Below, in pieces: positions 14,055 to 28,079 of a stretch of DNA of 29,841 nucleotides. Position 1 is the first letter of the stretch, and every line of letters starts with the position of its first letter. Origin of the DNA: a virus. Location: IMG/VR virus record IMGVR_UViG_3300017527_000151, positions 1 to 29,841 of that record; one strand, 5' to 3'. Under the pieces are notes generated by a model that searched no databases, was not told the DNA's origin, and was given only the letters and a program-made list of their open reading frames with translations. A program made the translations under genes and the position numbers.

Positions 14055-14519
14055 ATGGCAACTACGACAGGTACATGCACTGTTTTTGATATAGTCAAGG
14101 ATTGGATAGGTGACGAGGCTAGTAACGTAGATTTTGATGGAGATGCTTTCGGAGTTCTTCTCCTAGATAATACTTTGGAACCTGCCCGCGCTACTGATCA
14201 GTTCGTTGATGATGTATCTACAAATGAGGTAACTGGTAACGGTTATTCTAGAAAGGTCTTAACAGGAGTGTCTTGGACAACTTCTGGTGGTGCTAATGGA
14301 CAGATGATGTTGGATGCTACTAATCCGGTATGGACTGCATCTGGAGGTTCTATTGTAGCAAGGTGGTGGGTTCTTTATGATAATACTCCAGCTGCAGATG
14401 CAGACAAAAACTTGATAGCCTATGGTCTCTTGGATGACACTCCAGCAGATGTCACTACCACTGACACTAATACTTTAACCCTGAATATCAATGCTCTTGG
14501 TTTCTTTACTGTAGGGTAA
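14055..14519 (+). CDS. virion-associated protein, second of two paralogues
   Basis: 154 residues, acidic. It shares the N-terminal MATTT, a central FVDDV.TNEVTGNGYSRKVL, WWVLYDNTPAAD and LIAYGLLDD with the gene at 838-1299, although about 13 kb lies between them. The leader AGAGGATTTAATT is a strong ribosome-binding site. Homologues sit in tail-fibre loci of many phages. Two diverged copies suggest either two attachment points for different fibres or a fibre-module duplication. Confidence 0.8.
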   Translation: MATTTGTCTVFDIVKDWIGDEASNVDFDGDAFGVLLLDNTLEPARATDQFVDDVSTNEVTGNGYSRKVLTGVSWTTSGGANGQMMLDATNPVWTASGGSIVARWWVLYDNTPAADADKNLIAYGLLDDTPADVTTTDTNTLTLNINALGFFTVG

Positions 14520-18749: not shown

Positions 18750-19757
18750 ATGGCCCGTAAACACCTCATAATTTTAGATGTATTAACAAAATCCGGAGAA
18801 CGTACTTCGGATCTGTCTAGTGCATCTATAAATATTTCAGGTCAAGTTCCTCAAATAGACATAACTGGAGCAGAATCTTCTAATTTACCCGCCCATTCTG
18901 TTGCAATAGCTGGGATAGCTCCACAAGGAGTGGCTACAGAAGGTGCGCAAGTCAATCTTAGAGTAGAACATTTAATTGTTACTCATAGATCACCAACGGT
19001 TGAAAATAGTGGAACTACTCCAGCAACTCCTGAGTTAATAATTCTGTCTGAGGTTATGATTAAATCTCCAGAACTTTTAATTCCTCAGAAGAAGCCGGTC
19101 GGAAGTCTAACCCTTGATTGGGGGCATCCTTTAACAGAAGGGTTGGTTGGATTTTGGGTAGTACATCAAGGTAGAGTAAGAGATCTTGTTACAGGTAAGA
19201 ATTATGATAAAAATGGAGGAACCTATGTAGTAGATTCTGTTGGAGGGGAGATTTTAGATTTTCCTGACTCACCATCTGTTTCCGTAGATACTGGCGTTTA
19301 TGCTACAGGAGACATGAAAACACTTGTTACCTTAAATACATTTCATGCAGCCACTTCTCCAGGGGGGAATATACGTTGTCAAGGCGTACATGAAGCAGAT
19401 CATAGATTGTACTTGGGATCATATAGCACAGCGTATAATGGTCTCTTTGCTTATGGGACCTCTTACTTGCAAGTAAGTAATACTTATATGGAAGATGATG
19501 TATTTTACCTTTCTGGAATGACTAATAGAGGGTCTAATACATACATCTTTTTAGATGGGTCTCCGTTAAATAGTTTTGCCTCCACTTTCTCTGGAACATC
19601 TGGTCCCACACTACATTTTGGAGGTAGAGGCGCGAATACTACCATAGAGCCTCTTTATGGTAGAAGCTCCTTTATGTTAGTTTCTAAAAAGGAATGGACA
19701 GATGCAGACCATAAAGAATTTTCTTTAAACCCCTTTCAAATATTGGCGGGAGTGTAA
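18750..19757 (+). CDS. LamG-like fibre protein 5 of 5, with N-terminal 24-residue repeats
   Basis: 335 residues. The N-terminus resembles that of the 727-residue fibre. Residues 30-77 are two exact 24-residue units (SGQVPQIDITGAESSNLP, then AGIAPQGVATEG), with a degenerate third (THRSPTVENSG). SPELLIPQKKPVG follows near residue 106. The LamG-like domain is about residues 125-325 with MKTLVTLNTFHA, RLYLGSYS, NTYIFLDGSPLNSFAST, SFMLVSKKEWTDADH and the end NPFQILAGV. It bridges the LamG array and the pure-repeat fibre, showing that the two parts are exchangeable modules. Confidence 0.78.
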   Translation: MARKHLIILDVLTKSGERTSDLSSASINISGQVPQIDITGAESSNLPAHSVAIAGIAPQGVATEGAQVNLRVEHLIVTHRSPTVENSGTTPATPELIILSEVMIKSPELLIPQKKPVGSLTLDWGHPLTEGLVGFWVVHQGRVRDLVTGKNYDKNGGTYVVDSVGGEILDFPDSPSVSVDTGVYATGDMKTLVTLNTFHAATSPGGNIRCQGVHEADHRLYLGSYSTAYNGLFAYGTSYLQVSNTYMEDDVFYLSGMTNRGSNTYIFLDGSPLNSFASTFSGTSGPTLHFGGRGANTTIEPLYGRSSFMLVSKKEWTDADHKEFSLNPFQILAGV

Positions 19758-19760
19758 CTC

Positions 19761-21944
19761 ATGGACCGCCAACGCTTTATATTTTTAGGGTTTCCGTTAG
19801 CGGAAAGTAACACCTCTAATTTAGCTAGTTCGCCTATAAGTCTTACAGGTCAGATTCCTCAATCCGACATTACAGAATATAATGTTTCTGATGCAACTAG
19901 TTTCTCTGTAGGTCTTGTAGGTCAGATTCCTCAAGCAGATGTTACAGGAGATAATGATTCTGATCTAGTTTCTTTTAATTTAAGTGTCACTGGGATTGCA
20001 CCTCAAGCAACATCCACCGAATACCATATATCTGATCTAACTGCAAGTTCTATACCTACTTTTGGACAAACTCCTCAGATTACAACAACAGAGCATAGAG
20101 TTTCAGCCCTTACAGTAGACTTAGTAACAATTACCGGACAAGCACCACAAGCTACTGCAACAGAGTACAATGTTTCAGATGCAGCTAATGATTCTTTGTC
20201 AGTATCAAGCGCAATTCCTCAAGCAGATACTACAGAAAAACATATAAGCGCATCTCCTAGTTTTGCTTTAGGAGTTACAGGCGCAATTCCTCAAGCAGAT
20301 ACTACAGAAAAACATATTTCTGATTTGGTATCTGCAGCAGTTCAGGTACAAGGCCAGTTACCTCAGGCAGAGGCTACAGAAGGAGATACATCTAATATTC
20401 CTGTAGCATCTTTATCTGTACAAGGTAAAATACCACAAACAGATGTAACGCAACATAAGACCTCTGAGCTTCCTGTAGAGCAAGTTGACGTAACGAGTCA
20501 GGTTCCTCAAACAGATGTCACAGAACACCATACATCCTCTCTCACGACATTTTCTGTAGGTGTTCCTGGCAATAATCCAACAGCAGAAACTACGGAAGCT
20601 AGAGTATCAGATCTTGCAACAGCTTCAGTAGGTATAGCAGGACAGATTCCGCAAGCAGAAACTACGGAATACCATGTTTCTGATGTTACAGCTTTCCCTC
20701 TTCAGATACAGGGTCAAGTACCATTTGCAGATAATTCAGAAGGTGATACTTCTATTCTTCCAAGTTATGCACTTGAGATAGGAGATCAAAATCCGCAAAC
20801 AGATATTACAGAGAAACATATTTCGGATGGATTTTCTTTTGCTGTAACTCTAACTGCTCAAGTTCCACAAACAGATGTAAGTGATATTAATGCCGTTACC
20901 ATGGCAATTGATGCTGTAGGCATTACTGGACAAGTTGTTCAAGTAGAAAGTACTGAACATCGTATTTCTGATTTAGCAATAGATGGAATATTAGTTGGTG
21001 AACAAACACCTCAAGTAGAAAGTACTGAACATAAAACTTCGAATTTGGAAGTATTTGCTTTAGAGGTTACTGAAGTAGTTCCGCAAACAGATGCAACTGA
21101 ACACCGTGTATCTGAAGGCGCAGTTGCTTCGATAGAAGTACAAAGTAAAGATCCACAAGCAGAAGTTACAAATCATCATATTTCTAGTCTTGTAGCAGGT
21201 TCTATAACCATTATTGGTCAGGTGCCTTTTGCTAATTCGGGAGATGTTAATTTAGTTAATCTGCAAACCACTACTGTAGATGTGCAGAGTGGAATTCCGC
21301 AGACTACTATTACTGAAAACCGTGTTGTCACTCTTACTACTGGTGATATACAAGTTCAAGGGCAAGGACTGCAGGTAGAAATTACAGAAAATCATGTTAT
21401 TGAATTAGTAGCGGACAGCATAACTGTACTGGAACAAGATCCTACAATTGAGATTACTAATTCTAATGTAATTAATTTGGCTTCTGATAATCTCACTATC
21501 CTTGCAGCTAATCCTCAAGTAACGGTAACTGATCAAAGTATAGTAACAGTACCTAATACTTCCATAGCTTTATCTTCTCAGATACCACAAAGTACTACAT
21601 CCGAATATTATAATGTAGACATGTCAACGGACACTGTTGACATATCAGGTCAAGTTCCTACAGTCACGATACCACAAAATTATGTAGTGAATATGCAATC
21701 TGGTGGGGTGAATATTACTGCCATTGCACCGACAATACGTGTAACAACAGTTGGTCTACATACAGAGATTATCAAGTTCAACTTGAATATAGATCAGAAG
21801 GTAGAGATAATCAGCAATATTGATATGAAGGAAGCTCAAACTTTAAGTATAGATCAGAAGGTAGAGATGGTAAGTAATGTAGATAGGAAAAAATCCATTA
21901 CTAGTAATATAGACCAACTAAAATCCTTTGATAAGGAGTTATAA
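19761..21944 (+). CDS. fibrous protein of 26 exact 24-residue repeats
   Basis: 727 residues. Residues 1-28 are a short N-terminal segment similar to the start of the preceding LamG protein. Residues 29-652 are 26 units of exactly 24 residues with consensus [TQ]GQxPQxxxTE[YH]xxSDLxxxxxxV. Residues 675 to about 727 hold 20-residue charged repeats (IDQKVE, SN[IV]D) that may form a coiled coil. Pro-Gln turns, Thr/Ser-rich segments and alternating hydrophobics suggest a stacked or spiral beta shaft; no globular tip or enzyme motif is seen. ATG follows the previous stop closely. It is probably a long tail or side fibre shaft, or a length-variable surface fibre. Confidence 0.78.
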   Translation: MDRQRFIFLGFPLAESNTSNLASSPISLTGQIPQSDITEYNVSDATSFSVGLVGQIPQADVTGDNDSDLVSFNLSVTGIAPQATSTEYHISDLTASSIPTFGQTPQITTTEHRVSALTVDLVTITGQAPQATATEYNVSDAANDSLSVSSAIPQADTTEKHISASPSFALGVTGAIPQADTTEKHISDLVSAAVQVQGQLPQAEATEGDTSNIPVASLSVQGKIPQTDVTQHKTSELPVEQVDVTSQVPQTDVTEHHTSSLTTFSVGVPGNNPTAETTEARVSDLATASVGIAGQIPQAETTEYHVSDVTAFPLQIQGQVPFADNSEGDTSILPSYALEIGDQNPQTDITEKHISDGFSFAVTLTAQVPQTDVSDINAVTMAIDAVGITGQVVQVESTEHRISDLAIDGILVGEQTPQVESTEHKTSNLEVFALEVTEVVPQTDATEHRVSEGAVASIEVQSKDPQAEVTNHHISSLVAGSITIIGQVPFANSGDVNLVNLQTTTVDVQSGIPQTTITENRVVTLTTGDIQVQGQGLQVEITENHVIELVADSITVLEQDPTIEITNSNVINLASDNLTILAANPQVTVTDQSIVTVPNTSIALSSQIPQSTTSEYYNVDMSTDTVDISGQVPTVTIPQNYVVNMQSGGVNITAIAPTIRVTTVGLHTEIIKFNLNIDQKVEIISNIDMKEAQTLSIDQKVEMVSNVDRKKSITSNIDQLKSFDKEL
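19845..21716 (+). repeat. 26 in-frame 72-bp repeats
   Basis: Every unit is 72 bases without a single insertion or deletion. Units 6 and 7 share 37 identical bases (20209-20245 and 20281-20317) and units 16 and 17 share 21 bases (from 20940 and 21012), which indicates recent unit duplication. Later units (20 onwards) lose the SDL motif and are more diverged. Confidence 0.9.
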
Positions 21945-25586: not shown

Positions 25587-25593
25587 CCTAATA

Positions 25594-25664
25594 GGGGACT
25601 TTAGGTTTAGGATCTTTAAGGTCCAGAGTGCGTTTAGAGTTGTCCCCCTCTTGGCGCCCACGCC
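25594..25664 (+). ncRNA. structured 3' RNA after the 25170 gene
   Basis: GGGGAC (25594-25599) can pair with GTCCCC (25642-25647). Inside, GGATC (25610-25614) pairs with GGTCC (25620-25624) with one G-U. Next, GGCG (25653-25656) pairs with CGCC (25661-25664). An alternative pairing uses the CCTAA and TTAGG copies at 25582-25590 and 25601-25611. The region may be a structured 3' UTR protecting the message or a small RNA; only hand folding supports it. Confidence 0.35.
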
Positions 25665-25679
25665 TGGTGGAAATCCGGG

Positions 25680-25713
25680 AAGGGTCACTACTGAAAGGTA
25701 GCGGCCCTTTTAT
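25680..25713 (+). terminator. intrinsic terminator, plus strand
   Basis: The 12-base arms AAGGGTCACTAC (25680-25691) and GTAGCGGCCCTT (25698-25709) pair with one G-U and one mismatch around a TGAAAG loop, followed by TTTATT. It ends the rightward transcript where the leftward genes converge. Read leftward it lacks a clear U tract. Confidence 0.75.
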
Positions 25714-25715
25714 TC

Positions 25716-25877
25716 CTACGTGGTTTTACTTTCTAACTTTTCTAGTAATTGGGAGAGTTCAATTCTTTCGGAAGGTGTAATTCTTAGAATGTTTCGTATG
25801 ATCCAACGTACATTTGTTATGGTTACTTTTCTTCTTGTGCTAGGTATTTTATTTGATAACGAATTAGAAAATTTCAT
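25716..25877 (-). CDS. small basic protein, 53 residues, end of the leftward operon
   Basis: A minus-strand ORF from ATG 25877 to TAG 25716. It starts in an ATGA overlap with the stop of the upstream gene at 25874, strong evidence for coupling. The product is basic in its first half (KFSNSLSNKIPSTRRKVTIT) with a helix VRWIIRNILRI, followed by an acidic, Leu-rich helix (ELSQLLEKLES). It could be a small regulator or an accessory partner of the upstream protein. I recognise no family. Its stop lies three bases from the convergent terminator. Confidence 0.68.
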   Translation of the reverse strand: MKFSNSLSNKIPSTRRKVTITNVRWIIRNILRITPSERIELSQLLEKLESKTT

Positions 25878-26203
25878 GTAAAAATAAACTCCTCTGGGTC
25901 ATCTGTTTTTTTAAATTTAACAGCGTAACGTGTTTTACCTTTTAAATCTATTCTAGATAAAATTATTTCATAAAAAGGTATCTTAGATCCTAATTGTACT
26001 TCTTCAAAATCTTTTGATACGGCTATATATTGTAAGAGATCTGTTTCATATTGATTATCAATTATATGGATAGGTACCACTCTAGAGAACAATGCATGTA
26101 AAGCTTTCCATTCTTCGTCACTATTAACTTCCAGTATCAAGATTTTGGAAACTTTAAATCTTCCAAGTTTTCGTGACATTGTTGTTTTTTTGTTTTCTGA
26201 CAT
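25874..26203 (-). CDS. hypothetical protein, 109 residues
   Basis: The protein starts MSENKKTTMSRKLGRFKVSK and continues ILILEVNSDEEWKALHALFS, VVPIHIIDNQYETDLLQYIA and YEIILSRIDLKGKTRYAVKF, a mixed alpha/beta pattern with an acidic end. AGGA lies 8-9 bases before ATG. It is the first gene after the 352-base non-coding gap and is coupled to the 53-residue gene. No function is recognised. Confidence 0.7.
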   Translation of the reverse strand: MSENKKTTMSRKLGRFKVSKILILEVNSDEEWKALHALFSRVVPIHIIDNQYETDLLQYIAVSKDFEEVQLGSKIPFYEIILSRIDLKGKTRYAVKFKKTDDPEEFIFT

Positions 26204-26309
26204 GCTTATTTTCCTATTTGATAGCTGTTGTAAGCGTTTCTAAGCTCGGTAAAAACTTTAAGTAGTACAATGCTATTACTTTACAGAAAACCGAATACAG
26301 GAAGCTTTA
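26204..26309. other. non-coding leader between the structured element and the 109-residue gene
   Basis: With the element above this completes a 352-base stretch without a gene. It holds a nested pairing, TCGGT/ACCGA (26245-26249 with 26290-26294) around AAGTA/TACTT (26259-26263 with 26276-26280). The minus-strand RBS AGGAAAATAAGC lies next to the gene start. No clear promoter is seen on either strand. Confidence 0.4.
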
Positions 26310-26554
26310 CATTCATTGGTCAAGGGTACTGGCAGGGCGCTAAACCTGCTTTTGAGTGTTCACCGTGTCTACCCGCGATCGCATATAGGCGTCTATAGTG
26401 GTATCAAGGTTCTGGCTTCCACTAATGCACGGATGCAGCCCGATTAAGCTCTATCCTGTGGTCAATTCCACGCACCTAACCTAGTAGTTCAACTCATTTC
26501 CCGCGTGAGCAGTGTGTCTGCTTTCCACACCGCAGTACCCTTGACCAATGAATG
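26310..26554. ncRNA. candidate structured RNA closed by a 22-bp perfect inverted repeat
   Basis: Bases 26310-26331 (beginning CATTCATTGGTC) are the exact reverse complement of 26533-26554. The 201-base interior is clearly richer in G+C than the flanks and lacks a useful ORF. Hairpins visible by eye are GCAGG/CCTGC (26332-26349), TATAG/CTATA (26384-26397), TAGTGG/CCACTA (26396-26424), TGCA/TGCA (26426-26437), GTGG/CCAC (26458-26471) and AGCAG/CTGCT (26508-26522); TGAGT/ACTCA (26353-26357 with 26492-26496) can join the ends. Some of these overlap as alternatives. The element begins one base after the stop of the minus-strand gene at 26556, in an otherwise gap-free operon, so leftward transcription is likely. 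A mobile DNA element is the alternative. Confidence 0.5.
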
Positions 26555-26555
26555 C

Positions 26556-26753
26556 TTAATTTTTGACATGTTGTACAATTATTAATACCTCACGCACACC
26601 TTTCAAATCTTTTTCATACTCATAACAATGTTTAGTAAAGTAATCTGTAACTGATTTAAGAGTATCTTTTTCTGATGTGACATACAGGCGTGTTGTTGTT
26701 ATTTCTTTACTGTCACCTTCACAATGTTCTGTTGTTACTTCAAATACTTTCAT
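26556..26753 (-). CDS. hypothetical protein, 65 residues
   Basis: A small acidic protein: strands MKVFEVTTEH and TTTRLYVTSEKD, a helix TLKSVTDYFTKHCYEYEKDL, and a final strand VREVLIIVQHV. This beta-alpha-beta order suggests a compact ferredoxin-like fold. Two Cys residues are present but form no metal-binding motif. It follows the preceding gene after 11 bases and stops one base before the inverted-repeat element. Unknown function. Confidence 0.68.
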   Translation of the reverse strand: MKVFEVTTEHCEGDSKEITTTRLYVTSEKDTLKSVTDYFTKHCYEYEKDLKGVREVLIIVQHVKN

Positions 26754-27100: not shown

Positions 27101-27403
27101 TTAAATTTGTATAGCATCTACCACTAATATATTTTTAAATGGAAGTGTGTACGGTAAATCATCTGGACATTCTAAAGCTACAGACAAATGATATAAACCA
27201 ATAGTTTCAAATGGTACTTTTAATCTATAACCACCTCCACAACCACGTCTTCCTACAGCATAAGGTTGAAGTTTAGTGACGCATTTTTCAATATACGATA
27301 CACTGCGATCAATATTTTCTGCAATTTGTTCAATAGTTATTCCAGGGTACCGGCTCATTTCTCGTAGTATTTGTATCGCCAAAATCATTTTACGGGTAAG
27401 CAT
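27101..27403 (-). CDS. Rrf2-like winged-helix protein
   Basis: 100 residues. The order matches the DNA-binding domain of Rrf2-family regulators: LTRKMILAIQILREMSR, the helix-turn-helix ITIEQIAENIDRS-SYIEKCV (about 21-45), and the wing GRRGCGGGYRL (about 51-61). Full Rrf2 proteins are about 150 residues with a dimerisation helix and often an Fe-S Cys cluster; this one ends soon after the wing and lacks the cluster. It may regulate phage genes or interfere with a host regulon. Start ATG lies two bases past the upstream stop. Confidence 0.72.
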   Translation of the reverse strand: MLTRKMILAIQILREMSRYPGITIEQIAENIDRSVSYIEKCVTKLQPYAVGRRGCGGGYRLKVPFETIGLYHLSVALECPDDLPYTLPFKNILVVDAIQI

Positions 27404-27405
27404 TA

Positions 27406-27813
27406 TTAGACTCCGTTATAAATACCTTTAGTAGTAATTGTCAAAGAAGTGAATGCTTTAATTTCAGGTCTGATAGGTGTTGCATGTACATCTAATCTAC
27501 CTAATACCCAATGGTCAAATCTATAAAACACTGTTACATTTCCTACAGGTGGATTATCGAATACAACATCTTCGGTTAATTGTTCACACAGTAATGTTTC
27601 ACCATCTTCAGTTATTTTGAACTTAATTGGTTTAGAAACTTCTTTACCTTTTTCATTTCTTAAAACAACCCAACCATCTACATATTGAAATAATTTTTTA
27701 GGGGGTGTTAGTTCAGGAATTATAAGATCATCAGCTTTTACAGGTTCAGATTTTAATCCTGCATAAGCGAGAAGAGGTGCTGGAAGTAACGAAAGAAACT
27801 TACGTCTATTCAT
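27406..27813 (-). CDS. exported protein with a twin-arginine signal
   Basis: 135 residues. The N-terminus MNRRKFLSLLPAPLLAYAG has the RRxFL twin-arginine motif, a short hydrophobic core and a plausible Ala-x-Ala-type end near KADD. The mature part is beta-rich (LFQYVDGWVVLRN, IKFKITEDGETLLCEQL, GNVTVFYRFDHWVLGRLDV). Tat-type signals at the N-terminus of small phage proteins of unknown function are known. It would be exported folded to the periplasm. It overlaps the upstream HTH gene by ATGA. Confidence 0.7.
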   Translation of the reverse strand: MNRRKFLSLLPAPLLAYAGLKSEPVKADDLIIPELTPPKKLFQYVDGWVVLRNEKGKEVSKPIKFKITEDGETLLCEQLTEDVVFDNPPVGNVTVFYRFDHWVLGRLDVHATPIRPEIKAFTSLTITTKGIYNGV

Positions 27814-28079
27814 AATCTTTTCCCATACTTTTGAGCCCTTTGAATGTGCAAGGTGACAGTGTTAGGACTGCATTCAAATTTCTTTGCGATTTCATGTACT
27901 TTCATACCACTCTCTCGCAAGGCCAACATCAATTTACCATCTTCTTTTGTCAACCAATTTTTAGATAGGCCATACTGTTTTCGTAACCTAGCAACTCTAG
28001 CTGTTGAAATGTTAAAGTGTTTGGCTGTAGCTTTTCCAGAATGATTTGAACTAAATTGGATAAATTCTTCAGGTATCAC
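27810..28079 (-). CDS. small protein with two helix-turn-helix motifs
   Basis: 89 residues with GTG start overlapping the upstream stop (GTGA). Two HTH-like segments are visible: residues about 15-37 (KATAKHFNISTARVARLRKQ) and about 58-82 (KVHEIAKKFECSPNTVTLHI). The second resembles sigma-region-4 or LuxR-type recognition helices. A transcriptional or DNA-binding role is likely. It overlaps the downstream Tat-signal gene by ATGA, so it may control its own operon. Confidence 0.72.
   Translation of the reverse strand: MIPEEFIQFSSNHSGKATAKHFNISTARVARLRKQYGLSKNWLTKEDGKLMLALRESGMKVHEIAKKFECSPNTVTLHIQRAQKYGKRL

What the first reader, a model, noticed from the sequence alone, without database searches (positions are those of the whole stretch)
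26310..26554. Candidate undescribed structured RNA in the only large gap of the leftward operon
A 22-bp perfect inverted repeat closes a 201-base GC-richer interior with several hairpins and a possible long-range pairing. In an operon where neighbours overlap or lie within about 11 bases, a 352-base gap is striking. It starts one base after a stop codon. It does not resemble tRNA, tmRNA or the known large phage RNAs I can recall, and the 22-bp stem would be a good RNase III target.
Basis: partly seen in the sequence, partly recalled or inferred. Interest (0 to 1): 0.8.

Follow-up and report, generated by a model that had tools for sequence, protein, structure and literature searches.

The report
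Inverted-repeat insert in a phage operon
A 245-base non-coding segment framed by a perfect 22-base mirror-image repeat sits between two genes of an unknown tailed phage; it is real and unusual, but the sequence gives no sign of a folded RNA beyond that repeat, and it may just as well be a small DNA insert.

Summary
In detail: a perfect 22-bp inverted repeat (26310-26331 / 26533-26554, chance expectation about 1e-6) closes a 201-nt non-coding interior in the only large gap of the leftward operon, starting one base after a stop codon. The interior (51.7% GC against 39%) is the most GC-rich stretch of the contig. The interpretation as a structured RNA is not established. The fold z-score of the whole (-5.1/-4.0) comes entirely from the 22-bp stem: the interior alone scores +0.17/+0.20, and shuffling the interior under fixed arms folds as well 39-60% of the time. 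No Rfam or tRNA match. No sequence relative was found in phages, plasmids, E. coli, 84,980 prokaryote species (repeat ends only) or IMG/VR, and no relative of either flanking protein, so covariation could not be tested. The arms end sharply, have no G-U pair, and enclose compositionally foreign DNA; removing the segment leaves the upstream stop codon intact; the flanks show a weak 4-of-5 duplication (CTTTA/CTTAA). My leading reading, at modest confidence, is a MITE-like insert whose transcript folds into a long RNase III-type hairpin. A dedicated phage RNA remains a serious rival. It is a singleton, so neither membership can be proven.

The parts
26310..26331 (.). left arm of the perfect 22-bp inverted repeat
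26533..26554 (.). right arm of the perfect 22-bp inverted repeat
26332..26532 (.). 201-nt non-coding interior, 51.7% GC; fold z +0.17 (-) and +0.20 (+)
26204..26309 (-). 106-nt AT-rich leader between the element and the last gene; unremarkable fold (z +0.23)
26556..26753 (-). 65-aa gene of unknown family whose stop codon lies one base before the element; predicted beta-beta-alpha-beta
25874..26203 (-). 109-aa last gene of the leftward operon, no recognisable family
26305..26309 (.). CTTTA left flank, possible degraded 5-bp target duplication with 26555-26559 (CTTAA), 4 of 5
26555..26559 (.). CTTAA right flank, possible degraded 5-bp target duplication
26578..26606 (-). sigma-70-like promoter match TTGAAA-17-AATAAT (10 of 12) that would start transcription just before the element; no more such matches than in shuffles

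Best explanation
A 245-bp non-coding DNA insert bounded by perfect 22-bp terminal inverted repeats, MITE-like in anatomy, which landed just behind a stop codon near the end of the leftward operon, where it does no harm. Because it lies inside a transcribed operon, it is expected to be co-transcribed and to fold back into a long hairpin with a 22-bp duplex stem. RNase III would cut that stem and separate the mRNA of the last gene (109 aa) from that of the genes before it. Shown: the arms, their exactness and sharp ends, the non-coding interior of foreign composition, and the absence of excess interior structure. Inferred: the insertion origin, co-transcription, and RNase III cleavage.
For: Perfect arms with abrupt ends on both sides and only Watson-Crick pairs. 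Interior GC 51.7% between flanks of 33%, the contig's extreme. No excess folding in the interior on either strand, globally or in 70-nt windows. No coding frame with a recognisable family. Size 245 bp and repeat of 22 bp lie within the range given for prokaryotic MITEs (<500 bp, 4-30 bp repeats; typically intergenic, some mainly in 3' untranslated regions; transcripts form stable stem-loops; RNase III cuts Correia element transcripts at the repeats: PMC10969869). Taking the segment out leaves the upstream TAA intact and shortens the gap to about 107 nt in an otherwise packed operon. Flanks CTTTA / CTTAA match 4 of 5.
Against: No second copy in the window, and no copy or related repeat in any searched collection. 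No transposase with such ends was identified. The possible target duplication is imperfect and would occur by chance about 12% of the time. MITEs are usually AT-rich (PMC10969869), whereas this is GC-rich. No empty-site relative was found. GC-richness in an AT-richer genome is also what a structured RNA would show.
Confidence: 0.4

Rival explanations
1. A dedicated phage non-coding RNA: the minus-strand transcript is cut out of the polycistronic mRNA at the 22-bp stem and its multi-hairpin interior acts in infection (as a regulator, decoy or scaffold).
For: Whole-element fold -98.4 kcal/mol, z -5.1 on the operon's strand against -4.0 on the other; GC enrichment; the only gap in a packed operon; a promoter-like match just upstream. 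Precedent: Vibrio cholerae PLE satellites make an abundant transcript between inverted repeats, and ICP1 an ~800-nt non-coding RNA (PMC7567579).
Against: Interior alone z +0.17, and shuffled interiors fold as well. No relative, hence no covariation. No Rfam hit. No antisense match to gene leaders beyond 8-9 nt, unlike the reported PLE transcript. No intrinsic terminator was seen at its downstream end.
Confidence: 0.28
2. A cis-acting mRNA hairpin native to the phage: the long stem sets an RNase III cleavage or stability boundary between the second-last and last genes; the interior is only a loop.
For: Position between two genes of one operon, immediately after a stop codon; 22-bp perfect stem and unconstrained interior.
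Against: A 201-nt loop is far longer than a processing signal needs, and the loop differs in composition from the rest of the phage.
Confidence: 0.17
3. A DNA-level recombination or inversion site (inverton): the 201-bp interior flips between the inverted repeats to switch a neighbouring gene.
For: Exact arms of about 20 bp with a ~200-bp non-coding interior have the general size of invertible promoters (own knowledge).
Against: No promoter-like match in the interior on either strand. No recombinase was recognised among the proteins scanned; the two-HTH 89-aa protein 27810-28079 has no catalytic domain. The interior is GC-rich.
Confidence: 0.08
4. Assembly artefact or chance.
For: Single metagenome contig, no second observation.
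Against: Chance about 1e-6. An inverted chimera would not return to the same operon; both flanks continue coherently.
Confidence: 0.04

Closest known systems
Prokaryotic MITEs, including the Correia element and QMITE2 (PMC10969869)
   Same: Short, non-coding, exact terminal inverted repeats, intergenic just after a gene, transcript folds into a long hairpin
   Different: Single copy; no parent transposase found; GC-rich rather than AT-rich; target duplication doubtful; in a phage
Inter-inverted-repeat (IIR) transcript of PLE satellites (PMC7567579)
   Same: Non-coding segment between inverted repeats in a virus-like genome
   Different: No antisense match to gene leaders beyond 8-9 nt; transcription here unknown; PLE sequence not held, so not compared
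Large ornate phage RNAs GOLLD and ROOL
   Same: Non-coding, predicted multi-hairpin fold, phage setting
   Different: 245 nt against several hundred; no tRNA genes nearby; no Rfam match; interior not more structured than shuffles

Membership tests
MITE | terminal inverted repeats of about 4-30 bp bounding a non-coding element under 500 bp | tested here: met
   22 bp, 245 bp, no recognisable coding frame
MITE | target site duplication | tested here: inconclusive
   CTTTA / CTTAA, 4 of 5; about 12% by chance
MITE | further copies or a transposon with the same ends | tested here: inconclusive
   none in the window, phages, plasmids, IMG/VR or GTDB by exact or near-exact ends; host unknown, so its genome may not have been covered
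structured non-coding RNA family | conserved structure with covariation | not testable with these tools
   no homologous locus found
structured non-coding RNA family | folding beyond composition apart from the closing stem | tested here: not met
   interior z +0.17 / +0.20; arms-fixed z -0.29 / +0.32
any Rfam 15 family, tRNA or tmRNA | score at the gathering threshold, or ARAGORN call | tested here: not met
type III toxin-antitoxin RNA (ToxI-like) | tandem repeats upstream of a toxin gene | tested here: not met
   no tandem repeat; the 109-aa downstream protein has no family match
retron ncRNA | adjacent reverse transcriptase gene | tested here: not met
   no reverse transcriptase among the proteins scanned
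inverton | promoter in the invertible segment and both orientations observed | tested here: inconclusive
   no promoter-like match inside; orientation needs reads

The most novel reading that the evidence does not exclude
A new class of compact phage non-coding RNA, excised from the leftward operon's transcript by RNase III at a 22-bp closing stem, with an interior whose function depends on tertiary contacts or sequence rather than on stable secondary structure.
Probability: 0.22. Interest if true: 0.6.

Novelty: new member of a known kind. Interest (0 to 1): 0.32.

Why it matters
If it is a mobile insert, it is a case of a MITE-like element in a phage operon, where such elements are little reported; the 2024 review of prokaryotic MITEs does not use the word phage. 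If it is an RNA, it would add a small inverted-repeat-bounded RNA to the few phage RNAs known. The work also shows that a strong whole-element fold z-score can come from the inverted repeat alone.

Tried and rejected
Rfam at gathering and permissive thresholds, and ARAGORN: nothing. blastn against phages, plasmids and E. coli genomes: nothing in the element. Exact arm in IMG/VR: none. Outer 10 bp of both arms with a 205-235 spacer: nine genome and two viral hits. None was alike inside by blastn or inspection, and about seven were expected by chance in the genomes; two (L011, L014) are other real inverted repeats of 26 and 23 bp. Inner arm pattern: one hit, inside a gene. Arm with up to 3 mismatches in 395 genomes of the order of Vibrio: 5 hits against 6 for the reversed control, i.e. 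chance. BLAST against 369 class and 297 family genomes: none. Relatives through flanking proteins: none. DUF5662 gave 80 viral loci but no synteny around the element. Antisense pairing to gene leaders: at chance level. Toxin-antitoxin, retron and tRNA-like readings rejected. A single-sequence structure of the 109-aa protein was too poor to use; the 65-aa protein gave no significant fold match.

Full report
Observation. The window is a 29,841-base virus record of a tailed phage: rightward tail, fibre and lysis genes, then a short leftward operon. In the only real gap of that operon (26204-26555) lies a perfect 22-bp inverted repeat with 201 nt between its arms. The chance expectation is about 1e-6, and nothing of that length occurs in 1.42 Mb of other viral DNA fetched here. 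The right arm ends one base from the TAA of the preceding gene.

Is it a folded RNA? The whole element folds with z -5.1 on the operon strand and -4.0 on the other. The interior alone scores +0.17 and +0.20. With the arms kept and only the interior shuffled, 39% (minus) and 60% (plus) of shuffles fold at least as well. No 70-nt interior window goes below z -1.5. So the statistical signal is the inverted repeat and nothing else. This does not exclude an RNA, since some functional RNAs have unremarkable energies (own knowledge; no control RNA was run here), but it removes the positive argument. No Rfam family, tRNA, tandem repeat or antisense match was found.

Composition and borders. The interior is 51.7% GC, the extreme of the contig, while the rest of the gap is 33%. 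Complementarity stops abruptly at both ends of the arms and contains no G-U pair. Both are expected of a DNA element with terminal repeats; GC enrichment alone would also fit an RNA. Removing the element leaves the upstream stop codon in place. The flanks CTTTA and CTTAA could be a decayed 5-bp duplication, but a match of that quality arises by chance about 12% of the time.

Relatives. No sequence relative of the element was found in 50,697 phage records, 72,556 plasmids, E. coli genomes, samples of several hundred genomes around Vibrio, or IMG/VR. The GTDB collection was scanned only for the outer ends of the repeat. The flanking proteins are orphans too. The phage's own kinship is distant: a tail protein resembles those of 80-kb Vibrio siphoviruses at about 23-30% identity. 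The host is therefore unknown, and the absence of copies says little about the host's own repeats.

Mechanism. Either way, a transcript of this operon, if made, would carry a 22-bp duplex between the last two genes. By analogy with Correia elements, whose transcripts are cut by RNase III at the repeats (PMC10969869), the stem probably separates the mRNA of the last gene. I lean to a MITE-like insert (0.40) over a dedicated RNA (0.28), a native processing hairpin (0.17) and an inverton (0.08). The PLE satellites of Vibrio offer a published middle road: their abundant transcript between inverted repeats was proposed to be domesticated from a MITE (PMC7567579). I do not file the element as a proven MITE, because copies and a sound target duplication are lacking.

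Noticed in passing
L070:4261-4402: A 19-bp perfect inverted repeat in another viral contig encloses a tRNA-Glu-like sequence (TAGCTCAG, anticodon arm CCCGTCTTTCAAGCGGG, acceptor-like GCGCCCC/GGGGCGC) with an insert in the D arm and an acceptor helix lengthened by 12 bp; ARAGORN and the Rfam tRNA model do not call it.
   Followed up: partly
25587-25720: The gap between the converging operons folds moderately well (z -1.70) and ends in a strong hairpin followed by TTTT, probably the terminator of the rightward operon, with a further GC-rich stem before it.
   Followed up: partly
838-1299 and 14055-14519: Two copies of the same family (phrog_644, unknown function) about 13 kb apart among the tail genes.
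   Followed up: no
18817-21902: Long proteins built of repeats with a 72-base period (24 aa), probably fibre-like.
   Followed up: no
27101-27403: An Rrf2-like winged-helix regulator in the leftward operon (Pfam PF02082 above its cut-off).
   Followed up: no
L038:4106-4373: Cluster of direct and inverted TTTTTGCGTCATTT-type repeats next to a long ORF in a viral contig.
   Followed up: no
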